A model generated the notes under the pieces. It saw only the letters and a program-made list of their open reading frames with translations. It was not told the origin of the DNA and did not search any database. The position numbers were made by a program, and so were the translations under genes. DNA of 64,000 nucleotides from Isoetes taiwanensis. Its lineage: Eukaryota; Streptophyta; Lycopodiopsida; Isoetales; Isoetaceae. The stretch covers positions 14,522,902-14,586,901 of the forward strand of contig JAJEKV010000006.1 of the NCBI GenBank assembly GCA_021234155.1. Direction: 5' to 3'. Below, piece by piece: positions 23,421 through 64,000 of this stretch; the first letter of the stretch is position 1; each line of letters begins with the position of its first letter.

Positions 23421-23661
23421 GAGAAAGGGAAAATCTGTGGCAGAGCCCCTTTTTTTTCTTTGCATATTTCTTATTTGTTTATCCTTAATCCGGCAACACA
23501 AACCCTCCACGATTTAGGGCAGAGCTTAGCGAACTTGCAGAGCTTCCAGAAGCAGACGCCGGTAATGGAGTAGCCAGCTCCGGCATGAGCAAAAAAACCC
23601 ACCTGCTCGATTTAATCCTGCGCGTCCAATTCTTCAGCACATCCATTCTGCAAAAGTAGCC

Positions 23662-24078
23662 ATGGGGAACTATTTTTCCAATGATGATGAGCGCTATGTG
23701 GATTCCAAGCTTGCCCCGTCCCCTCCTTCCTACCCGGCATATAATCCTCCACCAAAACCAGCTGCAAATGGCAGCAGTGTTCCTCATGATTCTAACAAGT
23801 CCGGCGGTAGTAGTATCCCTCTCAAGCATCAGATCAAGCCTAGACCTACTCCACAATCCTTAACTGGTAATGTGTTGGGGAAGCCTTTGGAAGATGTGAA
23901 GTCAATCTATGTCGTAGGAAGGATTGGTCTTTACAATGCAACGGAGCACATCTTCAAGAGCCGCTTGCAAGCCAATCGGACAAAAAGGATCATTTTCACA
24001 GCTTCCTTCTGCTGCAGATCATGGAATGGTAGGCTCAGATTTTGGAGAATATGCTCGAAATGGATCGGGCAGAGGTAA
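23662..24078 (+). pseudogene. CPK: Calcium-dependent protein kinase, N-terminal exon fragment
   Basis: An ATG opens MGNYFSNDDERYVDSKLAPS, a Pro/Ser-rich variable region, then TGNVLGKPLEDVKSIYVVGR at residues 68-87. Plant CDPKs start MGNxxS (Gly2 myristoylation) and enter the kinase domain with VLGKPLEDVKxxYxxGxELGRGQFG. Here homology stops at GR: the following IGLYNATEHIFKSRLQANRT is not kinase. There is no Gly-rich loop, catalytic core or EF hand. A second scrap (SAADHGMVGSDFGEYARNGS, another frame) follows before GAGGTAAG. It therefore looks like a chimera of host gene pieces, as made by Helitron or Pack-type capture. The usual palmitoylated Cys near position 4-5 is absent. Confidence 0.8.
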
Positions 24079-47056: not shown

Positions 47057-47445
47057 ATTTTAACTCAGCTTTGGCGGAATTGGACAGATGTTGTTCTATA
47101 GTTTTTTTCTGAGGGTTCTAGGGTTGCAGACAAAGCTAACCACCTATGCAGACTCCTGGATAAGGTCCATCAACATCCGCTTATATCCGACAAAGGCCTT
47201 ATTTGGTCCAAGCATCTAGGTTATTGAAAGATGGAGCAACCTATTGTTTCATTTTCGCCTTGAACCTGTTTAATTTTATCTATGCATTGCTGCTTTGAGT
47301 CAGTACATTTTAATTTGCAAGCTCGAAACTCAACATACACGCCGTGTGAATTTGCAAAGATGTATCAAGCGCACCGCTTAGAAAAGAGGTACATTCTACT
47401 GCACCAAGAAGCGCCACATATTCATCATGATGCTATGGTAAGGAA
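47057..47445 (+). repeat. Segment A, copy 1
   Basis: Runs from AACTCAGCTTTGGCGGAATT to TTCATCATGATGCTATGGTA. It contains a protein-like frame, QLEKRYILLHQEAPHIHHDA in the later copies (HRLEKRY here), that ends at GGTAAGGA, a good splice-donor context. Family unknown. Other copies: 49209-49377 plus 61264-61480, and 63391-63860. Confidence 0.8.
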
Positions 47446-48414
47446 TCCAACTGGCAAAAAATCAGAATTTATTTTCGTACAATGCATTAATTACTTAATT
47501 TGTGAACGCCTTTGCCATCGCAAAAGCGCCCCGACTTCTAATTGCCACATCGGAACGCAAACCTTTCTAGAACCCGGCAACCTGCACGGGTTTACGTTTT
47601 TTGAGGCCCTCTCCTTGTCGATTCGGCTTCTGACCTTGCCGTGATCTTATCGTGGGAGTGGGGGTGTTGAGGTCGAGCGGGGACCCTAAAATCCCCCCGC
47701 AAGCTGCTTGCCCCGAATTTCCTCTCCCCAAGGCACTGGGGACCGACGGGCGACCTCCCCTCTCCAAAACTGCGATTTGGTTCTATCAATGGACTCAGAA
47801 CGTCGACATTGCCCTGGGGACCAAGTTCCGTGGCCAGAAGACCACCCGACCTCCCCACACTCGTAGTCAATTGGCCTAGGATGTGGATGCCGGATACTGT
47901 TGTGGAGGGCGTGAGTGTTTCCTACTTTTGCAAAACTGAACTTGTAACTTGCTCCCTAGGGTAATTTCGCCATTCCGGACGACTTGGCGAGGTCCCGAAC
48001 GACAAAACACTGCGGTTTCTACAAGGCCGACCTCAGAACGCTTCGCGGTTTGACAAGTTCTCCCGGACCGATCTGGAATCTTTTGGGCCTTCCCGAAGAG
48101 GGGCCCCTGAACAGAGGATCCAACGGTCAGATAAGGGAACCGGGCTCCGGGAGGGTTGTTGTTAGTGTGCGGCCCCCCGGGGGAGCGCTGCCAGGAAGGG
48201 CTGTCTCGGGAACTTTTTTGGATCCAGTCTCCTGGGGTCCGGACTCTCCCCTCTTGTGAGGGAGCCCTGCAAGCTCCTGGCCTCGTTTGACTTGGGGAAG
48301 GGTGCCAGCTCGGTTGCCCCGCAACGGGCTGGCCCGACCATTCTAATGCTAACCCTTTGACCTAGACCTTCTCCGAAAATTCCGAAAATTGGGCTGTGTG
48401 CTGGAGATGAATTA
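47446..48414 (+). repeat. GC-rich unit B, long form, copy 1
   Basis: Begins AATCCAACTGGCAAAAAATC and ends CTGGAGATGAATTAGG. It contains CCCTGGGGACCAAGTTCCGT and GGTCAGATAAGGGA. It has lost about 100 bp after CCACATCGG relative to the other copies. It has no recognisable protein or rRNA similarity. Confidence 0.8.
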
Positions 48415-49208
48415 GGAATCCAGCTGGCAAAAAATCAGAATTTATTTTCGTACAATGCATTAATTACGAATTTGTGAATGTCTTGCCACTGCAAAAGCGC
48501 TCCCCGACTTCTAATTGCCACATCGGGAGGAGGACAGGCCCAAACTCCATTCCGTCAGTTCCCCTTGCTCCGCGTTCTCGGCCGCAGCTTCTCAGCCATG
48601 TCCCAACTGCAAGAGACCAAAACTCGGCCCCCAAAACGCAAACCCTTCTAGAACCTGGCAACCCACAGGGTTTACGTTTCGGAGGCCCTCTCCTTGTCAG
48701 ATTCGTCGGGGACCTTGCGCCGTATCTTATCGTGGAGTGGGGGTGTTGAGGTCAGAGCGGGGACCCTAAAATCCCCCCGCAAGCTGCTTGCCCCGAATTT
48801 CCTCTCCCCAAGGCACTGGGGACCGACGGGCGACCTCCCCTCTCCAAAACTGCGATTTGGTTCTATCAATGGACTCAGAACGTCGACATTGCCCTGGGGA
48901 CCAAGTTCCGTGGCCAGAAGACCACCCGACCTCCCCACACTCGTAGTCAATTGGCCTAGGATGTGGATGCCGGATACTGTTGTGGAGGGCGTGAGTGTTT
49001 CCTACTTTTGCAAAACTGAACTTGTAACTTGCTCCCTAGGGTAATTTCGCCATTCCGGACGACTTGGCGAGGTCGATTTGCCATTCCGGAGCCTCTCCAG
49101 TGCCCGAACGACAAAACACTGCGGTTTCTAAAAGGCCGACCTCAGGACGCTCCGCGGTTCCGATGATATGGCAAACTCGGTTTCTGTATAATGGGGATGC
49201 ACCCTAAC
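48415..49208 (+). repeat. GC-rich unit B, short form, copy 2
   Basis: The same start as copy 1, nearly identical over CAAGCTGCTTGCCCCGAATT to GGTAATTTCGCCATTCCGGA. It ends early at CTCCGCGGTTCCGATGATAT and passes into segment A. Confidence 0.85.
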
Positions 49209-49377
49209 TCAGCTTTGGCGGAATTGGACAGATGCTGTTCTATAGTTTTTTTCTGAGGGTTCTAGGGGTTGCAGACAAAGCTAACCACCTATGCAGGACT
49301 CCGGATAAGGTCCACTGAACATCTGTTTATATCTGACAGTGCCTTATTTGGTCCAAGCATCTAGGTTATTGAAAGAT
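49209..49377 (+). repeat. Segment A, copy 2, left half
   Basis: Ends TAGGTTATTGAAAGAT at 49377, where the large transposon is inserted; it continues at 61264 (GGAGCAACCTATTG). Copy 3 shows the uninterrupted junction. Confidence 0.9.
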
Positions 49378-49409
49378 AACCATCATTCAATTAAATTGGG
49401 ATTATGTCT
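49378..49409 (+). repeat. Left terminal inverted repeat
   Basis: 32 bp, perfect inverse of 61228-61259. The first CpG half-site (AAATCGCGCC, 49416-49425) lies just inside it. Confidence 0.95.
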
Positions 49410-49706
49410 ATTCCAAAATCGCGCCGTATAAGCATTTTATTGACCATTATATTGAATTAACCACACTTTTGCACTGTGTTCATTTTCGGGCTAGGAAGAT
49501 GCATTTTACGTTAAAATGCAAAGGCATTCAAATATCCGATGCAAATGACCCATATTATGACAGAATGTTGGCAATAGAAAAAGCAGGAAATTGCTTATTA
49601 ATTCGCACATTCACGGACGACAACGAAATCTAAACATTGAAATTGTAATGCTTTACGAATAAATAACAGCAAGCAAGTAGCTACAAAACAGAGATTTTCG
49701 TGGTTC

Positions 49707-49727
49707 AAATCGCGCGTGGCGCGATTT
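49707..49727. repeat. CpG palindrome copy
   Basis: AAATCGCGCG-T-GGCGCGATTT, a near-perfect inverted repeat, just downstream of the minus-strand stop at 49773. Confidence 0.9.
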
Positions 49728-49772
49728 GCTTGGCATAAATAACGCATTATAATAGAACATAAACTTAAAAAA

Positions 49773-50069
49773 CTAATCCGATTCATCATCGTCAGGCGCT
49801 GCAGGCGGTCCTGAGATCCTGTCGATCATGAACAAACCATGCTCTGGATTCCATATAAGATGGATTACAACATCAAAGGGATCAGGATAGAAGCGGACGG
49901 GATTCATAGCAACGACATCAAGCCAGTCCTGAAGTTCTATTTCTAGCTCGCGGCACCTGCAGAGGTCCGCATGGTTCATCTTGCAGGTAATAGAAGAAGA
50001 TCTTATAGAGGGGTCAGAATGGTGTGTGGAGATATTCAAAACTGGTGGGAAGACAGACTTCATATTCAT
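49773..50069 (-). CDS. Unknown acidic-tailed C-terminal exon
   Basis: The minus frame reads CRELEIELQDWLDVVAMNPV, then RFYPDPFDVVIHLIWNPEHG and an acidic end PDDDESD with a stop at 49773. An acceptor-like AG (CTATTACCTGCAAG) precedes MNHADLCRC at about 49980, so the true exon may be 49773-49980. Its upstream part would overlap the ParB gene on the other strand. Not recognised. The composition (paired aromatic and acidic residues, charged tail) looks like real protein. Confidence 0.45.
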   Translation of the reverse strand: MNMKSVFPPVLNISTHHSDPSIRSSSITCKMNHADLCRCRELEIELQDWLDVVAMNPVRFYPDPFDVVIHLIWNPEHGLFMIDRISGPPAAPDDDESD

Positions 50070-50939
50070 GTCAAGGTTAAGAGAGACTGATCAAATGAAG
50101 AAGCAGGGAATTCTTATTACATGCGAAGTAGAGGACGATTCTTTCTGTTCTGTGCTAGTTGAAGTGGGCCAAAAACATAAGAAGAGCCTAAAGAAGATCA
50201 ATCGATGCAGTGCGAGCTCTTTTAAAGAGACTGCTTTAAGATCAGACGACATGGCCGATAACCTCTTCAAATTTGGCTGGACAGTTGGCGAGCCATTGAC
50301 TCCTAGAAGAATATGCGAGGGGCTTACAGCTGTTCGACGAGCCATTAGCACGAGGCCCTGGGCAAAGTCTACTTACAGGCAAAGAAGGATAAGGAAGAAG
50401 CTAGCTCTAAAGGCGGGGAAACTACGTATGACAAAGAGGCCTTACAAGTGACGATGACAAGGCCAGGCAGTTGGAGGCAATGAGCAAACTGAAGAAATAT
50501 GCCGATAAGTATCCACTGGGCCTTAGCTTCACCCATCCAGTCAACGTGGACAGGCTTTTCAGGTCCACTAAAGCAATTTATATTAGTAGAAGGTAGACAA
50601 GCAGCACTCTTTGGAGATATTGAACAGCATGATCGAAAATCCAGGGCAGGTGCGATGTAGTGCCATACGATACCAGAACAAAAAAGGTAATCATTTGGAG
50701 CAAGCTGGAGGACTTCATCGAGAACCCAGACATACATTTTATGATAATAGATGGCCAAAGATTCAATAGAGGCCCGAAAGATTCTCATCAAGAAGGCACG
50801 TAATCATCGGGAATCGGTTGTTCTATAAGCTTTATTCTCGCCGAAACCGCGGTTCTCGAAATGGCTCAACAACACCTGCCGAACTAGCCGAAATAAGCGC
50901 ACTCCTAAATGACATGGGAAAAACTTTCTTATACAAAAG

Positions 50940-51421
50940 GTAATTCTCTTCCTACATTTTTATTTTTTCAGATTTATTTCAAATCGCGCCAAAAGCCGAT
51001 TTCATAGTAGAAGGCAAATCGCGCCAGGCGCTATTTGCCTTCTCTAAATAGCAAAGGGTTCCTGAGATGGTAGACGTTTCTCGTCAAATAAGCAAATCGG
51101 CGCTGGATTTTCATATTAGAATACAAATGGCGCCACGATTTGCCTAGCCTGAGGAGACATGGCTGTCCTTGAAGATAGCCGTTTCTCCTCAAAGTAGGCA
51201 AATCGCGCGTGGCGCAAGTTGTATTCTAATATGAAATCGCGCCAGGCGCGATTTGCGTATAGGACGTGCGTCTACCATTCCAAAAACCCTTTGCTATTTA
51301 GAGAAGGCAATTCGCGCCTGGCGCGATTTGCCTTCTAATATGAAATCGCGCGTGGCGCGATTTTAAACTTCAAGGATTGTTTGAATTCACGATTATGAAG
51401 CTAACGAAGTTATTCCTTGCA
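50940..51421 (+). other. Intron made of a long palindrome-rich hairpin
   Basis: Bounded by GTAATT and TTATTCCTTGCAG. 51011-51170 and 51172-51332 are inverted copies of each other (GCCTTCTCTAAATAGCAAAG against CTTTGCTATTTAGAGAAGGC; TGGTAGACG against CGTCTACCA; TTCATATTAGAATACAA against TTGTATTCTAATATGAA). Eight CpG palindromes sit within the intron. The transcript would fold into an arm of roughly 160 bp. Confidence 0.85.
50981..51363. repeat. Cluster of eight CpG palindromes
   Basis: Copies at 50981, 51016, 51094, 51125, 51200, 51234, 51309 and 51343. The consensus half-site AAATCGCGCC is mirrored around one central base; 51234-51254 is perfect apart from the centre. Variants swap CC for CG near the centre (GCGCGTGGCGC). 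Confidence 0.9.
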
Positions 51422-53522
51422 GTCCCTATATAGAGCAACTTCGGCATGCTCGGAACCAGTGGATTGAATATGGGAAGCCAATGCCGGGCCATGGCCAAAT
51501 CCAAAAGCGGCCCAATTCAAGTTGCTGGAAAGGACACTTAGTCAGACTATAATACAGGACAAGACCAAGAGCACCAGAACAAAGAAAAAAAAAGGAGATG
51601 TCGCGGGTGACGCTGCCGAAGAACCAACTGTACCCAAGGATGCATGCAAGATAGTTTTTGCTTCAGATTCGGTTTGGGAGAAATGGAATGAATTCTGGGA
51701 CGCCTACGTGGAGAAGAAGTTGCCAGATTCACAAGGAAGATTTCCTCCTGTTGACACATCAATTTTTGATATCCATATAACGTAGATGAGGAAGGCCCGT
51801 GGATTGGAAGATCAAGAACTCATCTCATCCGGATAGGTTAATCGAAAGGAAATCCTTTACAAGAAAACCTCGGCAAAGAAAGGCTATGGAATCATTCAAG
51901 ATGCATGCAACGAGCTGAAAAATATTAAAGTGCTCAAGAAGGCAGTTGGTGAGGAATTACAAAGGCTTACATCAGAGTGGTCGTTGTCGGAGTTAGGACT
52001 CATGCAAAAGTATAACGTCTCCAACAACGACCTAAAGAAGTATGTATTTTGGTCCAAGGACTTTGTCAAGCGGCCAGGTTGAAGAATGTTGCAAAGATCG
52101 CGGGGATTCACACAAAAGTTGCATCCGACTTGAAACGAAAAGTCGCTAAGGTGAAGCAGACCCGGAGACGGAATCCACGTTTTTTTATCAAGTCTCCACT
52201 GGTTTCAAGTGTGCCTTGCCAGAAGTGGGTGAAGGTCCCCATGATATCACACTCTTCGTGCTTGATAGCCGAGGCACCAGATGGTCGCTTGAAGACTATA
52301 ATACGTTCTTCAACATATGCGGGGTTGCACCCACGTAAAATGAATTACACAATCGTCACTATATGTCCCTCCGACATGTCCTATGCATATGCTCTAAGTG
52401 CTGCAAATGACTTAGAATGCGTGAAAGTCATACGACAGGCGATCCTTATAGATGAAAACAAGGACAGTGACTTCAGCACAGCAAGTAAAATTTCTCATGT
52501 GCTTATTATTATGATAGCCATGATGGATGATAAGGAATATGAAAGGCTTAAGGGAAAAACAGATGGAGAAAAATTAGCATGGCAGTGCTATCAGTTAGAT
52601 GAACGCATAATGCGAAACGTCTTCTATCTGGAACAAGAAAACAAGGGGAAAGCTGTCAAGGTCGTGGAAGAGTTAGAGGAAGAAGAGGAAGAAGAGGATG
52701 AAAACGAGGACGACCCAATTCTTGTGGGCCACATTAAGTATGAGCTCTTAACTTCACATAAGGGGAAGCTAAACAAGAACGGGTTCTCTATGGACCTTTC
52801 CCAGTACCTCATTGAAGCATTTTGTCCATTGGGAACAACTTGCTGGGAACTTCACGTTGGAGGTTACATCGGTAGAGAAGCTTTGAAGTTAGCAAGGAAA
52901 TGTCAGAGCGTCGTCTCCGATGATCTCGCCAGGAATTTCTTAGACCTCTTCTTTGAGAAAGTACTAGAGGAAGCACCTAGGGGACCAATCGGCAGTGCAA
53001 AAAACAAAGCTTCTAGCTCTAAGGCCGAAATACCGCAGATTTGCTTAAGGAACGGAGAATTTGAGAAAGCTATTTGTTGGCCAAAACATGATGGATGAAA
53101 TCGAGGAGCAGCCGATCAACTCAGTACATATCGACATGCCTGTGAACATCTATGACACTGAAAATATAGATCAGGATGAAGCTAACAAGGATGATGATAA
53201 TAACAATATTGATGATGAAGCGGACTCCAAATCTGAAAACACTAGCCAAAGTTAGCGTAAAAGAGTAATGAACTATCAAGCATAGTTCAGCTGTCATGAT
53301 CTCAACCGATGTGGTTGGTGCTTCTATCGACCGAGACAACTCGAAATAAGGACGAAAATCGGAAGAATACACCGCTGGGAATGAAGAAGAAGAAAGGTAT
53401 CGTAACAATCTTCCTTTTTGATATCCATGCATTTTTCAAACTACAAGCATATAGAAATCGCTACCGCCGATTTAGAGTTACCTAGAGATCATATTTTTAA
53501 ATTATGTTGACATGCATCATTC

Positions 53523-53927
53523 TTGAAATCGCTACCGGCCTGCTTTCCATTTCCATTTCTTTTATCTCATACGCTATTGTTCTCCTTACGTAAAATGATT
53601 TGGCTTCCCCAAAAGTACTGGGTCTTTGATTTGAATGGTGTGCTATGTAGAACGTTACCTAAAGCAACGCTTGAAAAGTCATGGTATGCGCAACAACCAT
53701 TTGAGACACGCACCAAATATGTTTACCCGCCACTTTTATCCGAAGGAGATGTTGGACCAGCCTTCACCGCTTTCACAGTAATTTGGTCATCTATGGAGCA
53801 TAGAAATATACAGGATGTTTTGAAAGTAGTGCCTGAACTAAATAGAAATTGGGCGTCCGAGGTTCTACCTGAGCCTTTATTATTCCAGATGTATCTTCTA
53901 ACGTCAATACATGCTGCAGGTCTGTAA
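53523..53927 (+). pseudogene. FCP1/HAD-like phosphatase N-terminal fragment
   Basis: The plus frame reads PQKYWVFDLNGVLCRTLPKA (residues 29-48) and FTAFTVIWSSMEHRNIQDVL (residues 82-101). HAD phosphatases of the FCP1/NIF (RNA polymerase II CTD phosphatase-like) family have hhhDxxGhL and then a VWSS/IWSS motif after about 50 residues, followed by N-V-hydrophobic. Plant members often read FDLNG. The downstream Lys and DD motifs are missing: the frame passes into sequence that also encodes the minus-strand gene at 53.8-54.0 kb and stops at 53927. ATG at 53523 gives a hydrophobic lead that may be intronic; an acceptor could lie nearer 53610. Possibly a cargo gene captured by the transposon. Confidence 0.65.
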
Positions 53928-54734
53928 CAGTAACATCTTCATCTGTCCTTTGCTTTTTCTGGGCTGTAGAGGTCTCGCCTTGCTTGGTCCTCCCTCTTTT
54001 GATTGTCTTTTGTGATCCTGTGAAATTACAGCACATGGGTTAATCTTTTAATGCTCAAATATATGCTGTCGACACATATGCAACAAAAACGCGCTTGGCG
54101 CGATTTGAAAATGAATACACAGCAAGTTCATTTAGTTTATTGGGATCAGGGGAGCATTTCGTCCCAGCCAAAATGCAACAAATACGCGCTTGGCGCGCTT
54201 TAGAAGTGACCTGAAAGATAAAGAAACTAACGTAATGCCTAATTAAATCAAGGCGCCCGGCGCTTTGTCCGAATCAAAATGCTCAGGACACAACTAACTA
54301 TAAAAAATGCAACTTAAAGAGTTGAATCTTCATCAGAGGACACAACTAACTATAAAAAACACAACTAGCTACTGAATACTGTTCAGCTAAGTATACAAGC
54401 TTCAAACAGCACATACAGCATTAAAAGAGAAACTAACATGTACACATTAAGCATTTGTTTCCATACATTTTTGGGACATATGAACTCAAACATAAGAGGA
54501 CACATGCTTCTTATTGGATAATAACTATATTATTACAGAAAAACATCCTAAAAACCTAACAAAAAAAGGGACACAGAAATAAATTACAGAACAAAAATAG
54601 ATCAATTACCTGAGGCGCTTGTTGGATTTGTGCTTTCTGCTTGTTCAGCAGCCTCCAGGCTTGGGATTTGTGCTTTGGGCGCCGCCCTCCTCTACCAAAT
54701 ACCGTTCTGCCAAGGCCGATCCTCTAGACGCCAT
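53791..54734 (-). CDS. Unknown two-exon gene with a basic NLS-like stretch
   Basis: On the minus strand ATG at 54734 starts MASRGSALAERYLVEEGGAQ. The exon runs to CTCAG|GTAATT (about 54612). After TGTAATTTCACAG (about 54020) the next exon reads GSQKTIKRGRTKQGETSTAQ and KKQRTDEDVTVTDLQHVLTL. The intron of about 590 bp holds three CpG palindromes. Frame is not kept throughout exon 1 (a stop near its end), so it may be decayed. No family recognised. The basic KRGRTK/KKQR stretch suggests a nuclear or DNA-binding protein. Confidence 0.45.
54086..54266. repeat. Three CpG palindromes
   Basis: At 54086, 54180 and 54248, with GCGCTTGGCGC and GGCGCCCGGCGC centres, inside the intron of the minus-strand gene. 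Confidence 0.85.
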
Positions 54735-54869
54735 AGAACCGCAAGTGCGGATAATATGAGACTCGATTTTGGTTTAAACTTATATGTATGCGCTCATAAT
54801 CTAGGCCGCCGATTTACAAAATCAGAATTCATAATTCGCGTCCTTTTAAATTTATACCGCTTTAATTAA

Positions 54870-55690
54870 CCGCCCCGGTTCCGCTCATTTACAAATTTAA
54901 ATTTTGTTTTTCTTTTTAGTGCAATTTCAAGATAACAATTAATTATTAATTTCAAGAAACGATATGTGGCAATCTACTACCACCTAATCGGCCACCTACT
55001 ATCGAGCCAAGATCATTCCTACTATCGAGCCCAAGAACAATCGACTATCGAGCGCCCAAGATCCGCTTTACAACGCCTTCAATCCCATTCGATCGAGCCG
55101 CCTTCAATCCCATTCGATGTCTCTGAACTATGGTGAGTGTGATTCCATTCAATGCATTCTCTTGTTCTCTATTTTTCGCCCTCTATTTTTTCCAATGCAT
55201 TCTCGGTTCTTTATCGATTAATGAGAAGAATGCTATCTTTTAACAAAGAAATTTGAAGCCGAGTAGGCTTATGTAAAATCAAGATCCGAATCCAAGTTCT
55301 ATGTGTCATGGTGTTCCTCTTGGAAACAGTTTTACAAAGATTTCCATTATAAACCGCAATTATGAAGATGAGGCTCTTCCAAGAAGACATCCCTAAGTGG
55401 CGCGTCTATTTGGTGAAAGTGTGGGCACATTTGTAGCATGGCCAAAAGAACGTCTGAAAAAGGTATTTATATTTGGATATTCAAAAAAAATGAATATATC
55501 ATAACATCTGCGTGATGTTGTGAATTTTGAATTCTTTGATGTTCTTTAGCCAGTCATATCAACCCCATGAAACTACACATTAATGAAAATATGTAGTTTC
55601 TTGGGGTTGGTAATACTGGCTAGAGGGCATCAAAGGATTCAATGTTTTCGACATTGCATATAAAAAAACATAATAAACTAATGACATAAA
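54870..55690. other. Spacer, no clear gene
   Basis: Short direct repeats (CTACTATCGAGCC, CTTCAATCCCATTCGAT). A short inverted pair ACCCCATGAAACTACA / TGTAGTTTCTTGGGGT lies at 55562 and 55595. Confidence 0.4.
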
Positions 55691-55701
55691 AGTATAGTGC
55701 A

Positions 55702-55788
55702 AAATTGCGCCAGGCGCGAGTTTGTATTCATATTCCAAAAAAGTGTATGTACATTTCTTCTTCTACAAAAATGCGCCAGGCGCGAATT
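55702..55788. repeat. Two CpG palindromes
   Basis: At 55702 and 55768 (TTGCGCCAGGCGCGAG; ATGCGCCAGGCGCGAA), overlapping the 3' end of the next minus-strand gene. Confidence 0.85.
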
Positions 55789-55796
55789 CTTTCTAT

Positions 55797-56212
55797 CTCT
55801 ACAATCTGTCACATAGGCCCACTTCATCGGCCCAATACCGCAAAAAGTCCCACCTGAACCACTGTGATATGACAGGATCCTCATCTTCCCTGCGAATGTC
55901 GAGTCTCCAAACCAGAGTGTTGTAACGATCCTTGATACTATAAATCAAATCCTCGTACTTATTTGTTGGCATGAGCCTAACTAAGAGCATGAGGAGCCGC
56001 ATATGTCCAGAGATGCGATGGAAGTGTTCCCATGGCCCCGATACGATCGCCTAATGGAATCTCCAACTCTCTTTGAACGTTTTGAACAAAGACAATCAAG
56101 TAATATCTTGTACGTGGTCCGTGAGTTGATGGTCGTCCAGGGGAAGTGTATTTGAACTAGAACCATCCAGTGTAGGATCAGCCAGTGTCCATGCATAAGG
56201 AAAATCCATGGC
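55797..56212 (-). CDS. Unknown short gene, interrupted
   Basis: Minus strand, ATG at 56212: MDFPYAWTLADPTLDGSSSN, then in other frames SLFKTFKESW and finally LMPTNKYEDLIYSIKDRYNT and WFRWDFLRYWADEVGLCDRL with a stop near 55799. The Trp-rich C-terminus and consistent codon character argue for real protein. Not recognised. Confidence 0.45.
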
Positions 56213-56290
56213 ACTAGAACGAGAGAAATTAAGTAATTAGCAAATGATATATTACTCTCCCCATAAAACGATTCTGAACATACATAATTC

Positions 56291-56468
56291 AGAACGCACC
56301 AGGCGCGTTTGCTTTGTTTTTTTCACAGATCTATTTCACACGCGCCTGGCGCGATTTGTATAGAACCGTATGAAATAGATGATGCCAAACTAAAAACGCG
56401 CCTGGCGCGCTTTGATTAACCTAGTGGAAAATCGGAAACCAAAAATAGAAATGCGCCAAGCGCGATTT
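56291..56468. repeat. Four CpG palindromes
   Basis: At 56291, 56337, 56393 and 56448, spaced 46-56 bp apart, just upstream of the minus-strand gene's start codon. These are the last copies before the transposase side. Confidence 0.9.
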
Positions 56469-58026
56469 CTCCCATTCTAACATATTATTCTAACAGAATG
56501 CATAATGCAGAATAAATTATTTTAGTTCAATATTTAGTTCATTGTTTTAGTTCATTATTTAGAGCAGACAGAGGAAGAGCTAGTGAAATAGAATAAGAGC
56601 AGATACAGCAAAATCATATAAGCAAGATCATAGAGCAGATAGATCATAGATCATAGATCATAGATCATAGATCATAGAGCAGATAGATCATAGATCATTA
56701 TTTACTTCATTATTTTAGATCATTAATTAGAACAGATAGAGGAAGAGCTAGTGAAATAGAATAAGAGCAGATCATATAGGCAAGAATACAGAACAAGATC
56801 ATAGAGCAGGATCTATATATGATCACAGAACAAGATCATAGAACAAGATCGTAGAGCAGGATCTATATAGAGCAGTTTAGGACTGATGCATGTAAAAGTA
56901 AATAACATGCTTTATGTAAAATAACTACTTTATGTAAATAACAGGAAATACTAACCCGAGAATTAAGCCTTTGCCTTCGAGCCGAAACCAAAAGAAGCCT
57001 TAAGAAGCCTTAAGAAGCCTTATTGATTCGAGAAGCCTTAAGAAGCCGAGAAAAAGCAATAGCAGCTAATTTGGAGAAAAAGCAATAGCAGAAGCTTTAA
57101 CACAAAAAACCAAAGTTATTCAAAGTCAGAGAGATTGTAGAGAGCCGAAAAGCCAAAAAAGCCAGAGACATTGTATAGAGCCTACAAACCTTTGAGCCGA
57201 AAACACCTTTGAGCCGAAAACCCTAAAGCAGATGATTGTAGAAGCCGAAAAGCTCGAAAAGCCGAGTTTAAAGCAGATAGAAGTCGAGATTGATGCAGAT
57301 AGAAGCCGAGAAGCAGATAGAAGTCGAGATTGAAGCAGATTGAAGCGCCTAGATTGCATGCAGAGATTGAAGCGCCAGAAATTGTGGAGCCGAAAAGCTC
57401 GAAAGCGCCAGAAAGCCGATTGCAGATAGGTCGAAAGCGCCAGAAGAGAAGATCGAAAAGAAAAGCGCCAGAAAATAGGTTCGAAAAGCACCAGAAGAGA
57501 GGATCGAAAGAGAGACAGAAAAGCTGGAAAAGTTGGAAAGGGATTGTAAACTGGAAATAATAACTGCTTTAAAAAATTCGTACCGCGCCATAATAACTGC
57601 CGCGAACATTTATTACAAGGGTTATAAGTTATAAGATTTAAGGTTAATAGTTTTAAGGTTTATAAGTTAAGGTTATTAGTTAAGGTTAATATTTTTAAGT
57701 TCATAAATAAGGTTATAAGTTTAAAAGTTTATGAATTTGAATTTTGAAGTTTTAAGTTTTAGAAGTTTTAAGGTTATATTTATTGAAGGTTAGAAGTTTT
57801 AACCTTAAAACTTCTAATCTTAAAAGTGCTAACCTATAATAAGCTTTAAAGTTGTTTCTAAGGTTACAACATTTAAGGTTATTATAAGTTAATATATTAT
57901 AGGTTAACTTATTATTATTATAGATTAAGTTATTATAGGTTATTAAGGTTATTATTAAGGTTAACTTTCATTTAAGAACATGTTAGGGAGATGTTATTTG
58001 GATATGCTAACTTACTATAGGTTTTT
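56469..58026. repeat. Low-complexity spacer of the transposon
   Basis: Contains (ATCATAG)n at about 56640-56700, (AAGAAGCCTT)n at 56990-57050, and a degenerate AGCCGAAA/AGCGCC-rich stretch (57130-57540) whose plus frame is Lys/Glu-rich (RLHAEIEAPEIVEPKSSKAP). An AGGTTATAAGTT-type AT repeat follows at 57605-57965. No gene was recognised, though the Lys/Glu-rich part might be a leader exon of the transposase. Confidence 0.7.
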
Positions 58027-61009
58027 ATGCATTTTAGGTCAATGGCATGCAAAATGCTAAATCCCCCAAGGCCCCCAATGATGGTGATCAAGGCAAGGAA
58101 AAATCCCCAACTAATGAAGATGACAAAGATGATGGGAAAAGAAAGGAAAAGACCAGAAATGAAAAGGATGAAGATGACAAAGATGATGGCAAAGGAAAGG
58201 AAAAGACCTCAAATGAAAAGGATGATGCCAAAGGAAAGGAAATTGTACTTTATACTCGGGTCGATTGGAAAAACAAAAGGTCAAGATCCCGCATGCATGC
58301 AAATGTAAAAGGCAGGGAGAAGGGATTATTGTTCTAGCAGATCCTATCAATGCAAAGTGAATGATGAAAGATTAGGGGAGGATAGGTTAGGTGTGGCAAT
58401 CTCAAAATTATATGACAATTGGAAGGAAAAGGGTTCGTGCAAACAAGAATGCCTAGCTTGTGTGAAGCAACTAGAGGTTCCAACTATTGTTGCATGGCCT
58501 AGGGACAGATTCAACCGGAGGGGAACTACATGTTTCCTATAGATGTAGAACCATTGTCAACAATGTTCACACAAGCTGTAGCAAGAGGCCACTTCCAACT
58601 TTCAAACATTATCCCACCAAAAGATGCAAGTCGATTATGATTGTTCTCCTCCGGCTATGATGAAGGTTAGAGGAGGTGAATGTTGTTGGGCTTCTTGTGT
58701 TAGAATGTTCACAATAGAGGAGTTGGTGGGAGCAAGAGCTACATATCGAACATAAGTGTGATACCGTGAGGAATTTCATGTACACCATATTTGGCTATGC
58801 AATTCGTGATGAAAGATCAAAGAAGAAAAGATTCCCATTGAATGGAAAGTGGATATGTTCAAAAGCATGGATGGCTATACATGGAATTCCAACCTCTTCT
58901 TGGCAATAACCGCAAAAAGAGACATGAAAATGGTAGTAAAATTGCATTGCACGGGAACACCGGCCCCGGTAAGGCCTACCTCAAGAACTATAGCCGCAAA
59001 GGAAATATTTGAAAGATATGTGGATTTCAATGCGTAAAAACATGCCACATAAGAGTAAGAAGGATGAACAGGTAGAGTTATTGTTGAAAAGAGATTGCCA
59101 TCCCATTGTACCCGTAAGAACATATTAGAGGAAATAAATGCATTGCTTCGAACTTGGAGTGGCCTCTATATCCCAAAAAAGTTTTAGTAGGCTATGGAAT
59201 AAGCATTTCAAGCATGTGACCATAGCAACTTCAAACAACTTTGCCAAGTGCAATTTATGTGCTAAGTTGAAGGAGACACTAGATAAGACCAGCAACCAAG
59301 TCTAAGGGCAAAGATAAGGGAACATATGAAGGACCATATGACGATCAACTATCATGTAGATCAACTTATTGGATGTGGAGGACCTTATCCGCAATGGAAC
59401 CTAATAACTATCTATGTATTATACATGATAAAATGGACCAACAGAAGACTTGTCTTCCACAATTCAAGTACATTCCTATTGCATGTGGAAGATCATACCC
59501 TTTGCAGATTTCAATGATCTGGGGCAATATTGCATGGACAAATTCTCGCACCTATTATGGCCATTTCAGTTTAGAGTTGTGGAGTGATGGTCCGATTTTC
59601 ACATTGGGAGTATCATGAGGTGTTTAAGAAACTATGAGAAGGGTTACAATGGTCACCTACGTGATCCTACAACTAGCCGTGCACTACATAGTGCATTGTT
59701 GGATGGAACCCCTAATAGTATTGAAAAGTTTAGCAAGGCAAGATTTAGGAGGAATGGACCTAATGAACATGTTGGAGCTTCAACATCTCGTGCTAAACCC
59801 TCGAGATCTGCCCAAAGCTCCTCTTGCAACTAGATAATTGTGCTTTGGTCAAAATAAGAACAGTGGATGTTTTCTTTCCTATCCTACTTAATGTACCGTG
59901 GGTATTTTTGAAAGAGTCAATTTGGGGTTCCTAATGCCCTGGACATACTCATGAGGATGTGGATGCATTGTTTGGAAAATATAGTCATGTATTGAGACAA
60001 AGCAGACAGCTTACCAACTTTCCTGTGCTATTGGAAATATTTCATGGATGTACAAATCCATCTCCTATAGGATCTATCATAGAAGAAGTGCCTGATTGGA
60101 AGAGTTTTGTGGATGGTTATGCTCTCGACATGGAAGGTCATTCTAGACCTCTTCAATTCACTTTTGGGTGAGAGAAGGGATTCCAATCATGCAATGGAAA
60201 ATGAGACCTTCGTGAGGAGAAGTGGAGAGGTGGGGCAGAAATTTGGCACGAGGGGATGCAAATGGCAAGCCTATGATACCTCCCCGTCAACCAAAAGCTC
60301 TAAAACCAACCAAGAAGTCAAGCAATTGGGATTGACTAAGGATGGCATCAATGACTACATCAAGCATGGCAAACTAATTCAAATGAGACTAATCGTGCAT
60401 TGATAGATTATTGGAAGAAGGTGATCAACTTGTTGGATGAGGTAGACACATCCTCAGAAGAGCTGAAAGAAGGGTGGTTCCCTAAAAGTAAGTGGAAAAC
60501 ATTAGCCGGTGTCGACGAAGATGATGGTACCATTAGTAGCATTGTGAAGGCATATGCTCCTCCTCAACTGATAAACACTATGTTGGTCCTAAGAAGGATA
60601 GGCCAAAATATCTAGGCATGGATTGTTATGAACCTTCTAATCGACGTGGAGTGCCACCAATTTGTAGTAGTAAAACCAAAGCAGATCTAGAGACCTATCC
60701 AAAGGTGGTTGGGATGGACTATCTCGATATTTGCAAAGAAGATGGTGATGTGAACTTCAATAAGGTGCTAGGAATGGTGGTGTCCAAAGACATCGGTTGA
60801 GTAATGTCACCGATAAAGAAAGATATTCAGATTGTTGGACAAAGAGGTGGAGGAGAAATCCTAGTGATCCTGATCTTTGGCTAGACATTGAAACCGTATT
60901 GTACTCGTGGACTCCAAAAACTATTCCTAGTAAAACAGCGAGAGTTACAATACCTCAGGATGTAAAGAATAAGGTTCTCATATCCTTGGGGATGTTGGTG
61001 GAAAAATGA
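58027..61009 (+). pseudogene. DDE-type transposase with GHTHED-like motif (DUF7869-like), interrupted
   Basis: Pieces in family order: Lys/Asp-rich N-terminus (58050-58230), ERLGEDRLGVAISKLYDN, ICSKAWMAIHGIPTS (about 58855), FKHVTIATSNNFAKCNLCAK (59205 on, CxxC), a block with MDQQKTCLPQFKYIPIACGR (59430 on), GHFSLELWSDGP, MRCLRNYEKGYNGHL, LPKAPLATR then a decayed LDNC-like block, and the MPGHTHED-type region ending DALFGKYSHVLRQSRQLTNF (59960 on). C-terminal pieces continue to VLYSWTPKTIPSKTARVTIP near 60960 and a stop at 61007-61009. The D...DN...HTHED layout is that of a large family of plant, algal and animal proteins thought to be RNase-H-fold transposases. Several frame breaks make it non-functional here. 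The right TIR begins about 220 bp downstream. Confidence 0.75.
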
Positions 61010-61227
61010 TAAACAGTTACTATGTATCAATCACTTTTAATAAAAGTTGTGTACTACTTGAGTTTCATGATATATGATTTTGTAATTTGAAGTTAAGGTG
61101 TGAATTTATATTCCCATGTGTGATTATATGTTAACGTCTATTCTAGTCTAAGGGCAACAAAGTTACTAAAAAAGTGAATTTAACAAAGTTACTAAAAAAG
61201 TGCAATATAAAATTTATCCCAAAATTA

Positions 61228-61259
61228 AGACATAATCCCAATTTAATTGAATGATGGTT
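61228..61259 (-). repeat. Right terminal inverted repeat
   Basis: Perfect 32-bp inverse of 49378-49409, followed by target duplication AGAT. Confidence 0.95.
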
Positions 61260-61263
61260 AGAT

Positions 61264-61498
61264 GGAGCAACCTATTGTTTCATTTTCGCCTTGAACCTGT
61301 TTAATTTTATCTATGCATTGCTGCTTTGAGCTGTACATTTTTAATTTGCAAGCTCGAAACTCAACATACACGTTGTGTGAATTTGCAGCGTGTATCAAGC
61401 AGACCAGTTAGAAAAGAGGTACATTCTACTGCACCAAGAAGCGCCACATATTCATCATGATGCTATGGTAAGGATGTCGATATTAACAGTCACAGGTT
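61264..61498 (+). repeat. Segment A, copy 2, right half
   Basis: GGAGCAACCTATTGTTTCAT to TTAACAGTCACAGGTTATGC. Here the protein-like frame continues past GGTAAGG (MSILTVTG) before passing into unit B. Confidence 0.9.
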
Positions 61499-62575
61499 AT
61501 GCAGGTCTTGCCACTGCAAAAGCGCCCCCCGACTTCTAATTGCTACGTCGGGAGGAGGACAGGCCCAAACTCCGTTCCGTCAGTTCCCCTTGCTCTGCGT
61601 TCTCGGCCGCAGCTTCTCGGCCATGTCCCAATTGCAACAGACCAAAACTCTGCCCCCAAAACGCAAACCCTTCTAGAACCTGGCAACCCACAGGGTTTAC
61701 GTTTCGGAGGCCCTCTCCTTGTCGATTCGCTCTGGGGGACCTTTTGCGCTTTCTTGACGGGAGTGGGGGTGTTGACGCTTGAGCGGGGACCCTAAAATCC
61801 CCCTAAGCCGCTTTGCCCGCACTTCCTCTCCCAAGGCCCTGGGGACCGACGGGCGACCTCCCCTCTCTGGAACCGCGATTTGGCTCTGCCAAGGACTCAG
61901 AACATCGGCATTGCCCTGGGGACCAAGTTCCATGGCCAGAAGACCACCCGACCTCCAAGAAGCGCCAAAGTAGCTCATGTCCACCACACTCGTAGTCAAT
62001 TGGTCTAGGATGTGGATGCCGGATACTGTCGTGGAGGGCGTGAGTGTTTCTTTCTTTTGCAAAACCGACCTTGTAACTTGCTCCCTAGGGTAATTTCGCC
62101 ATTCCAGACGACTTGACGAGGTCGATTTGCCATTCCAGGACCTCCCGGTGCCCGAACGACAAAACACTGCGGTTTCTACAAGGCCGACCTCAGGACGCTC
62201 CGCGGTTTGACAAGTTCTCCCAGACCGATCTGGAATCTTTTGGGCCTTCCCGAAGAAGGGCCCCTGAACAGAGGATCCAACGGTCAGATAAGGGAGCCGG
62301 GCTCCGGGAGGGTTGTCGTTAGTGTGCGGCCCCCCGGGGGAGCGCTGCCAGGAAGGGCTGCCTCGGGAACTTTTTTGGATCCAGCCTCCTGGGGTCCGGA
62401 CTCTCCCCTCTTGTGAGGGAGCCCTGCAAGCTCCTGGCCTCGTTTGACTTGGGGAAGGGTGCCAGCTCGGTTGCCCCGCAATGGGCTGGCCCGACCATTC
62501 TAATGCTAACCGTTTGACCTAGACCTTCTCCGAAAATTTCAAAAATTGGGTTGTGTGCTGGAGATGAATTAGGAA
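61499..62575 (+). repeat. GC-rich unit B, long form, copy 3
   Basis: Begins at GGTCTTGCCACTGCAAAAGC. It retains the GGAGGAGGACAGGCCCAAAC part missing from copy 1. It has an extra AGAAGCGCCAAAGTAGCTCA stretch shared with copy 4. Confidence 0.85.
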
Positions 62576-63390
62576 TCCAGCTGGCAAAAAATCAGAATTT
62601 ATTTTCGTACAATGCATTAATTACGAATTTGTGAATGTCTTGCCACTGCAAAAGCGCTCCCCGACTTCTAATTGCCACATCGGGAGGAGGACAGGCCCAA
62701 ACTCCGTTCCGTCAGTTCCCCTTGCTCCGCGTTCTCGGCTGCAGCTTCTCGGCCATGTCCCAACTGCAAGAGACCAAAACTCGGCCCCCAAAACGCAAAC
62801 CCTTCTAGAACCTGGCAACCCACAGGGCTTACGTTTCGGAGGCTCTCTCCTTGTCAGATTCGTCGGGGACCTTGCGCCGTGTCTTGACGTGGAGTGGGGG
62901 TGTTGACGCCAGAGCGGGGACTCTAAAATCCCCCCGGAAGCTTCTTGCACCGAATTTCCTCTTCCCAAGCCCTGGGGACCGATGGGCGACCTCCCCTCTC
63001 CGGAACCGTGATTTGGCTCTGCCAATGGACTCAGAACGTTGACATTGCCGTGGGGACCAAGTTCTGTGGCCAGAAGACCACCCGACCTCCAAGAAGCGCC
63101 AAAGTAGCTCATGTCCACCACACTCGTAGTCAATTGGCCTAGGATGTGGATGCTGGATACTGTCGTGGAGGGCGTGAGTGTTTCTTTCTTTTGCAAAACC
63201 GACCTTGTAACTTGCTCCCTAGGGTAATTTCGCCATTCCGGACGACTTGGCGAGGTCGATTTGCCATTCCGGAGCCTCTCCGGTGCCCGAACGACAAAAC
63301 ACTGCGGTTTCTAAAAGGCCGACCTCAGGACGCTCCGTGGTTCCGATGATATGGCAAACTCAGTTTCTGTATAATGGGGATGCACCCTAA
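62576..63390 (+). repeat. GC-rich unit B, short form, copy 4
   Basis: The same short end as copy 2 (CTCCGTGGTTCCGATGATAT). It includes a 191-residue minus-strand open frame without family features, also present as shorter frames in the other copies; it is probably compositional. Confidence 0.85.
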
Positions 63391-63870
63391 CTCAGCTTTG
63401 GCGGAATTAGACAGATGCTGTTCTATAGTTTTTTTCTGAGGGTTCTAGGGGTTGCAGACAAAGCTAACCACCTATGCAGGACTAAGGTCCACTGAACATC
63501 TGTTTATATCTGACAGTGCCTTATTTGGTCCAAGCATCTAGGTTATTGAAAGATGGAGCAACCTATTGTTTCATTTTCTCCCATCTAGGTTATTGAAAGA
63601 TGGAGCAACCTATTGTTTCATTTTCTCCTTGAACCTGTTTAATTTTATCTATGCATTGCTGCTTTGAGCTGTACATTTTTAATTTGCAAGCTCGAAACTC
63701 AACATACACGTCGTGTGATACAAGCTCGAAACTCAACATACACGTCGTGTGAATTTGCAGCGTGTATCAAGCAGACCAGTTAGAAAAGAGGTACATTCTA
63801 CTGCACCAAGAAGCGCCACATATTCATCATGATGCTATGGTAAGGATGTCGATATTAACAGTCACAGGTT
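63391..63870 (+). repeat. Segment A, copy 3, with two internal duplications
   Basis: Uninterrupted A. TAGGTTATTGAAAGATGGAG and the following bases are present twice (63539 and 63586), as is AAGCTCGAAACTCAACATAC (63688 and 63723). The protein-like frame extends furthest here (GYAETFYGHVAHFGSEVSRL) before a stop at 63963-63965. Confidence 0.85.
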
Positions 63871-64000
63871 ATGCAGAGACGTTTTATGGTCACGTAGCAC
63901 ATTTTGGTTCAGAAGTTAGCAGACTGGATTTAGTAATACCCTTGTTCTTCTTTGAAAGAAAATAAACACTTAGGTTTGCTCTAATACGGTTGTCAAACTG
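63871..64000 (+). other. Continuation of segment A to window edge
   Basis: Carries the last codons of the unassigned A frame (DLVIPLFFFERK) and a short AT-rich flank. Confidence 0.4.

What the first reader, a model, noticed from the sequence alone, without database searches (positions are those of the whole stretch)
49378..61259. An 11.9-kb DNA transposon that carries a ParB-like/DNA-methyltransferase fusion
Seen: perfect 32-bp TIRs, an AGAT target duplication, an empty site preserved in neighbouring tandem copies, a DUF7869-like transposase on the right, and on the left a spliced gene with a ParB-type IIDGQ motif followed by methyltransferase-like blocks. Known: ParB-domain/N6-N4-methylase fusions are common in bacteria and phages, and some retroelements carry methylases. 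Inference: a eukaryotic cut-and-paste element that took up a prokaryotic-type modification enzyme and may mark its own DNA. I know of no described plant element with this set.
Basis: partly seen in the sequence, partly recalled or inferred. Interest (0 to 1): 0.96.

Follow-up and report, generated by a model that had tools for sequence, protein, structure and literature searches.

The report
Quillwort jumping gene with DNA-binding passenger
A quillwort genome carries many copies of a large cut-and-paste mobile DNA element that brings along a gene for a bacterial-looking DNA-binding protein joined to a methylation-enzyme-like part; such pairings were known from algae, and this one looks kept by selection but has probably lost the enzyme's active site.

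Summary
The 11.9-kb element is real: 49378-61259, perfect 32-bp TIRs, AGAT duplication, three empty sites. It belongs to a high-copy DNA transposon family in an assembly matching Isoetes taiwanensis. Of ten further copies read, five showed both TIRs (12.3-13.9 kb), all with 4-bp duplications and both genes. The right gene is DUF7869. The window copy is a wreck: both genes are frame-broken, and an internal inversion flipped and cut the left gene, which points the other way in all 17 other copies holding it. ParB/methylase support is indirect: no curated profile reaches its cut-off; the links run through a second, homologous gene in the same genome (0 of 500 shuffles per link). The catalytic [DNS]PPY motif is absent from the six in-frame copies covering its site. 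dN/dS near 0.1 between subfamilies shows past selection. Fourteen CG-rich palindromes inside the element, none elsewhere in the window, are candidate binding sites. ParB/methylase genes on transposons are published for algae, so this is a new variant (vascular plant, DUF7869, NIF domain, no catalytic motif), not a new category.

The parts
49374..49377 (.). AGAT target-site duplication, left
   Evidence: three empty sites in neighbouring tandem copies
49378..49409 (+). left 32-bp TIR
   Evidence: first 120 bp of the element found at 40 listed places in the genome, 32 of them (the window's own included) 100% identical
49710..56465 (.). 14 copies of a 15-bp CG-rich near-palindrome around TCGCGCCWGGCGCGA (starts 49710, 51019, 51203, 51237, 51312, 51346, 54089, 54184, 55705, 55771, 56294, 56340, 56396, 56451); candidate binding sites, inferred
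   Evidence: 14 in the element at up to 3 mismatches, 0 in the other 52 kb of the window, mean 0.0 in 20 shuffles
49994..53858 (+). segment inverted relative to the 17 other copies that hold all or part of it
   Evidence: blastn of the element against 10 copies and 8 more loci, 7 of which hold it
49993..50758 (+). left gene, N-terminal and ParB-like part, broken frames; IIDGQ ends at 50758
   Evidence: tblastn with the natural frame L056:2738-3844:-
51537..53507 (+). left gene, methyltransferase-like part, broken frames
   Evidence: tblastn with natural 670-aa frame L034:1901-3910:-, best E 3.6e-159
52258..52284 (+). VLDSRGTRW, at the place where a catalytic [DNS]PPY motif would be expected
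   Evidence: same or nearly the same in natural in-frame copies
52841..52903 (+). CWELHVGGYIGREALKLARKC, motif-I-like block
   Evidence: aligned in register with methylase motif I through a second gene
53526..53858 (+). NIF phosphatase-like part, cut by the inversion
   Evidence: tblastn E 4.3e-35 with L056:3-485:-, which is PF03031 at 6.7e-11; the window piece alone gave no Pfam hit
53851..54021 (-). about 58 residues of the left gene's N-terminal region, left in the original orientation outside the inversion
   Evidence: tblastn on the minus strand, E 4e-16
58038..60165 (+). transposase-like DUF7869 gene, many frame breaks
59935..60168 (+). single open frame matching DUF7869
   Evidence: E 7.5e-13
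61228..61259 (-). right 32-bp TIR
61260..61263 (.). AGAT target-site duplication, right

Best explanation
A degraded copy of a high-copy family of 12-14 kb cut-and-paste DNA transposons of Isoetes taiwanensis. The DUF7869 protein is most likely the transposase (inferred; no assay). On the opposite strand the family carries an accessory gene for a ParB-like / methyltransferase-like / NIF phosphatase-like protein. Shown: TIRs, 4-bp duplications, gene order and orientation in other copies, past purifying selection on the accessory protein, and no catalytic PPY motif in the in-frame copies read. Inferred: the protein binds the element's own DNA, perhaps the repeated CG-rich palindrome, through its ParB-like domain, and acts as a DNA-bound scaffold (against silencing, or as a partner in transposition) rather than as an active methylase. 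The window copy was inverted and broken inside and can move, if at all, only in trans.
For: TIRs, duplication and empty sites; 5 of 10 further copies closed within 15 kb, with GACA, CTTT, AAAG, TTAT and ATCC duplications and both genes; left-gene segment reversed against the window in all 17 of 18 further copies that hold it, and on the strand opposite the DUF7869 gene in the 8 where that gene was read too; N-terminal piece stranded in the old orientation; in-frame [IV]IDGQHS in the 3 natural N-terminal frames scanned; ParB-like part against a second gene's ParB-like part, blastp E 3.6e-9 to 5e-7 (one-sequence database) and 0 of 500 shuffles for the one frame so tested; second methylase against PHROG 3008 DNA methyltransferase 3.5e-4 and against an 11-protein methylase profile, 0 of 500 shuffles; this family against the second methylase, 0 of 500; NIF 6.7e-11; dN/dS 0.08-0.11 between subfamilies; 14 palindromes against 0 in the rest of the window.
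Against: Direct comparison of this family with the methylase profile is not significant (33 of 300 shuffles as good for the window copy; P 0.29 and 0.14 for natural copies). No Pfam hit reaches its cut-off for ParB or methylase in any frame scanned, the second gene's included; DndB appears at 0.005-0.006 for two frames and not for two others; NCBIfam gives nothing relevant. Neither ParB-like part matches the ParB domain of a phage fusion (P 0.17 and 0.15). Both structure models failed (pLDDT 34.8 and 33.4). One of 6 complete elements, c1100, has none of the palindromes even in decayed form, and 2 lie in the 2.6 kb beside copy c1071. dS between subfamilies is near saturation, and that count left out poorly aligned windows. 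No expression or binding data.
Confidence: 0.55

Rival explanations
1. The accessory protein is an active N4C/N6A DNA methylase that marks the element, as the first reader and the Ectocarpus authors suggest for their own protein.
For: Same architecture described in Sola1-1_Ec32 (passage of PMC12477816); ParB-like and methylase-like parts here.
Against: All 6 in-frame copies covering the site read VLDSRGTRW, VLDSCGTRW or ALDSRGTGW there, and none of the 11 frames of this family scanned has a [DNS]PP[YFWLIMH] motif; motif I is ELHVGGYIG or the like rather than DPFAGSGTT.
Confidence: 0.17
2. The accessory gene is a passive passenger, carried along by chance capture.
For: 16 of 18 copies show stops in their best-scoring frames; within-subfamily dN/dS of 0.33-0.77 looks relaxed.
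Against: dN/dS 0.08-0.11 between subfamilies; ten of 76 listed matches cover 600 or more residues with no stop; a homologous second gene with the same order of parts.
Confidence: 0.12
3. The block called methylase-like is another fold, and only the ParB-like and NIF-like parts are correctly named.
For: No significant direct profile match, no hallmark motifs, failed models.
Against: In-register match to the second gene (0 of 500 column shuffles), whose own block matches DNA methyltransferase profiles, though not Pfam or NCBIfam.
Confidence: 0.16

Closest known systems
Sola1-1_Ec32 of Ectocarpus (PMC12477816; passages seen)
   Same: Large DNA transposon with an opposite-strand gene for a ParB-like plus N4/N6 methylase protein (1104 aa there).
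   Different: 21.5 kb and a brown alga. Whether its Sola1 transposase is DUF7869 could not be tested. A NIF domain is not mentioned in the passages I saw. Here the catalytic motif is missing and the host is a vascular plant.
Red and green algal transposon ParB/methylase proteins (refs 50 and 51 of PMC12477816: Iyer 2011; Petroll 2025)
   Same: Cited there as similar proteins.
   Different: Neither work is held; nothing of them was seen.
Sola2 elements with captured Fanzor genes (PMC3627910; passages seen)
   Same: TIR elements with 4-bp duplications and captured prokaryotic-type genes.
   Different: Different cargo; TIRs of 12-21 bp; AT-rich targets (AWWT, ATAT, AAAT, ATTT), whereas here the targets include GACA and ATCC.
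Phage ParB_N plus N6_N4_Mtase proteins such as PhiCh1 ORF94
   Same: Order of parts: ParB, then methylase.
   Different: 419 aa; its ParB part shows no significant direct similarity to either ParB-like part here.
Bdelloid N4CMT (PMC8885841; passages seen)
   Same: Bacterial-type amino-methylase used by a eukaryote.
   Different: Described there as a captured host enzyme with a chromodomain and the catalytic SPPY motif, not as a transposon gene.

Membership tests
Cut-and-paste DNA transposon with TIRs | inverted termini plus fixed-length target duplication, with an empty site | tested here: met
   empty sites seen for the window copy only
DUF7869 (PF25273) proteins | profile match over the curated cut-off | tested here: met
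   62 bits against 26 for the read-through; 48.9 bits for one unbroken frame; 150 scored matches in the genome, all over the cut-off
Sola superfamily | 4-bp target duplication | tested here: met
   6 of 6 elements with both ends found
Sola superfamily | Sola-type transposase | not testable with these tools
   no Repbase sequences; DUF7869 is named in 0 held papers
ParB superfamily | ParB-type [IV][DN]G[QN]H motif and profile match | tested here: inconclusive
   motif in the 3 natural N-terminal frames of this family scanned, frame-broken in copy c1076; profiles only DndB 0.0057 and 0.0049 for L056 and L057, none for L051, and PHROG 10488, unknown function, 3.5e-4 for L057. That DndB is a ParB relative is recalled.
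N6_N4_Mtase (PF01555) | profile match | tested here: not met
   (max E 10)
N6_N4_Mtase (PF01555) | catalytic [DNS]PP[YFW] motif | tested here: not met
   six in-frame copies cover the site, none has it
ParB/methylase accessory proteins of algal transposons | ParB-like plus methylase-like parts in one transposon gene, opposite the transposase | tested here: inconclusive
   order and orientation met; homology to the algal proteins not testable, no sequences at hand
NIF phosphatases (PF03031) | profile match over the cut-off | tested here: met
   42.6 and 33.3 against 21.8 bits in two natural copies; no hit for the window's own piece

The most novel reading that the evidence does not exclude
A self-marking transposon with its own parS-like sites: the ParB-like protein recognises the 9-14 dispersed CG-rich palindromes that five of the six complete copies carry, loads onto the element, and uses a dead methylase fold plus a NIF phosphatase-like domain to change chromatin or polymerase state over it. 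That would be an element-encoded partition- or anti-silencing-like system in a vascular plant.
Probability: 0.25. Interest if true: 0.88.

Novelty: new variant of a known kind. Interest (0 to 1): 0.66.

Why it matters
[quoted passage not shown] this family (methylase-like, probably inactive) bears on that gap. It gives a high-copy element whose accessory protein was under selection, with candidate binding sites inside the element, so the proposal that such proteins bind their own transposon becomes directly testable. It also warns that 'methylase' labels on such genes need a check of the catalytic motif.

Tried and rejected
Three searches of the large protein database with the left gene found nothing; the first missed full-length relatives through its length limit. 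tblastn of the left gene in phages gave three hits at E 8-9, taken as chance. An IMG/VR hit for the DUF7869 piece (L017) was read and rejected as chance. IMG/VR scans for the methylase blocks found no relatives. PDB sequence searches gave noise; for the NIF part UBLCP1 at 0.044. Two structure models were too poor to use, and no fold search was run. A Pfam DUF6551 hit (0.016) was dropped because it appeared only after I had added one residue to the query; without it the hit vanished. ThiF, S-antigen, RFC1, Mut7-C and similar weak hits were rejected as noise.

Whole-genome searches for the second gene and for PF01555 did not complete, so its copy number and element are unknown.
Full report
Observation. 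The window holds an element of 11,882 bp at 49378-61259 with identical 32-bp ends, AGAT on both sides, and three identical unoccupied sites in neighbouring tandem repeat copies. A 32-bp perfect inverted repeat at the exact edges of a duplication with empty sites is far beyond chance.

Host and copy number. The window lies in an assembly of 1,658,258,908 bases in 1110 contigs. Isoetes taiwanensis was published at 1658.30 Mb in 204 scaffolds plus 909 contigs (PMC8566536, passages), so I take the host to be that lycophyte (inference from size and counts). The first 120 bp of the element matched 40 listed places (40 of 912 candidates were scored), 32 of the 40, the window's own included, at 100%. 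I fetched ten further copies: within 15 kb, 5 of 10 had a recognisable second TIR (12.3-13.9 kb), all five with a perfect 4-bp duplication (GACA, CTTT, AAAG, TTAT, ATCC), and all five with both genes. The other five had no closing TIR in the stretch read. So the family is cut-and-paste-like, with 4-bp duplications and no obvious target preference in six cases.

Right gene. DUF7869 is clear and abundant: 150 scored matches, of 9902 candidates, all over the cut-off, in the genome, and none in 14 control genomes. That it is the transposase is inferred from its place in the element; no held paper names it. In the window copy it is broken by many frame changes and stops.

The window copy is rearranged. 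Against the window, the segment 49994-53858 is inverted, in whole or part, in 10 of 10 copies and in 7 of 8 further loci, the eighth (L048) not holding it. In the eight copies where a part of the DUF7869 gene was read as well (c1031, c1034, c1036, c1040, c1071, c1076 and c1100, L046) the two genes lie on opposite strands; in the others that gene was not in the stretch. A 627-bp piece found in all ten copies is missing from the window element. The N-terminal region of the left gene lies outside the inversion on the minus strand (53851-54021) and the NIF part is cut at the other edge. The normal layout is therefore: accessory gene on the strand opposite the DUF7869 gene, as reported for Sola1-1_Ec32 of Ectocarpus (PMC12477816, passage).

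What the left gene encodes. From the window copy alone nothing is significant: 33 of 300 shuffles scored as well as the real sequence against a profile of 11 bacterial and phage methylases. Natural copies helped. One copy has an open frame of 670 aa (L034:1901-3910:-); a second subfamily, about 70% identical, has frames of 683 and 722 aa. The three natural N-terminal frames scanned read IIDGQHSVEA, VIDGQHSEEA and IIDGQHSIEA; in copy c1076 this stretch is frame-broken. Beside one copy, outside its TIR, lies a second gene with IINGNHSVAA and, further on, VLDFFSGGAFSRASLHVGR. The ParB-like parts match by blastp at 3.6e-9, 3.3e-8 and 5e-7 (one-sequence database), and by hhalign with 0 of 500 shuffles as good for L057, the one so tested; the second gene's block matches the methylase profile (0 of 500) and PHROG 3008 DNA methyltransferase (3.5e-4); this family's block matches the second gene's (0 of 500 column shuffles), in register at motif I.

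So ParB-like plus methylase-like is supported through a bridge, not directly. Pfam, NCBIfam and PHROGs give this family's methylase block nothing relevant; the second gene's block has no Pfam or NCBIfam hit either. The direct profile comparison is not significant (P 0.29; 0.14, printed before that script stopped on an error). The ParB-like part reaches only DndB at 0.005-0.006 for two frames, not for L051 or the second gene, and PHROG 10488, unknown function, at 3.5e-4 for L057; it does not match the ParB part of phage PhiCh1. A NIF phosphatase-like domain follows (6.7e-11 and 4.8e-8), with DLNG at the first motif; that this departs from the usual DxDx of active enzymes is recalled. Two AlphaFold runs failed (pLDDT 34.8 and 33.4).

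Activity. Six in-frame copies cover the expected catalytic site: four read VLDSRGTRW, one VLDSCGTRW, one ALDSRGTGW. No [DNS]PP[YFWLIMH] occurs in any of the 11 frames of this family that I scanned, nor in three of the second gene. I therefore doubt methylation activity. The second gene may itself be damaged (a stop lies between two of its frames).

Selection. Between subfamilies, over 436-561 codons in windows of at least 40% identity (the rest left out), dN/dS is 0.08-0.11 with dS 1.7-2.1, near saturation. A looser count without that filter gave 0.15 and 0.20 for the two diverged copies c1034 and L053, and 0.33-0.77 for the others; within the second subfamily 0.34-0.62. The gene was under purifying selection while subfamilies diverged, and recent copies look relaxed. 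In one search, 16 of 18 copies had stops in their best-scoring frames; in the genome, ten of 76 listed matches (66 of 6086 candidates scored) cover at least 600 residues without a stop.

Candidate sites. A 15-bp near-palindrome around TCGCGCCWGGCGCGA (up to 3 mismatches) occurs 14 times in the window element and not in the other 52 kb; 13, 13, 10 and 9 times in four other complete copies, and 0 times in c1100, also when decay of CG to TG/CA is allowed. Shuffles (by 2-base blocks) gave 0-0.1. Against a strict link: two hits lie in the 2.6 kb outside c1071, and a looser decay pattern hits the rest of the window 4 times. The second-gene region has none. ParB proteins bind palindromic parS sites (recalled); a link here is inference.

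Known and new. PMC12477816 (passages and part of its reference list) already describes a ParB-like plus methylase gene on a DNA transposon and cites green and red algae; refs 50 and 51 were not held. PMC6338049 (passages) says transposons encoding methylases are not present in land plants. I saw no paper on such an element in a vascular plant in the listings of searches (20 of 54 listed; none found; 10 of 18; 12 of 131; 3 of 3); those listings are partial and the library lacks most subscription papers. New are the host, the pairing with DUF7869 (unless Sola1 turns out to be DUF7869), the NIF part, the missing catalytic motif and the repeated palindrome. Verdict: new variant of a known kind.

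Noticed in passing
L039:3424-4881 and L054:1064-1384 (G000:C1040, outside the right TIR of copy c1040): A second, divergent ParB/methylase-like gene in the same genome, with a clearer methylase motif I; its own element was not found.
   Followed up: partly
L056:3-485 (-), window 53526-53858: NIF (FCP1/SCP-type) phosphatase-like domain on the accessory gene, with DLNG at the first motif.
   Followed up: partly
window 49710-56465: 14 copies of a CG-rich near-palindrome found only inside the element within this window.
   Followed up: partly
window 50997-51348: Foldback of 80-90-bp inverted arms inside the left gene, between the ParB-like and methylase-like parts; similar repeats lie in the same place in several other copies; intron or nested foldback element not decided.
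   Followed up: no
window 47161-49377 and 61260-63876: Tandem repeat array (units of about 1.1 kb) into which the element inserted.
   Followed up: partly
window 23566-24075: First exon resembling a plant calcium-dependent protein kinase (recalled resemblance).
   Followed up: no
L048:3-3490 (+): One copy shows no left-gene match in the stretch read but four open frames of 156-281 aa, apparently of another element.
   Followed up: no
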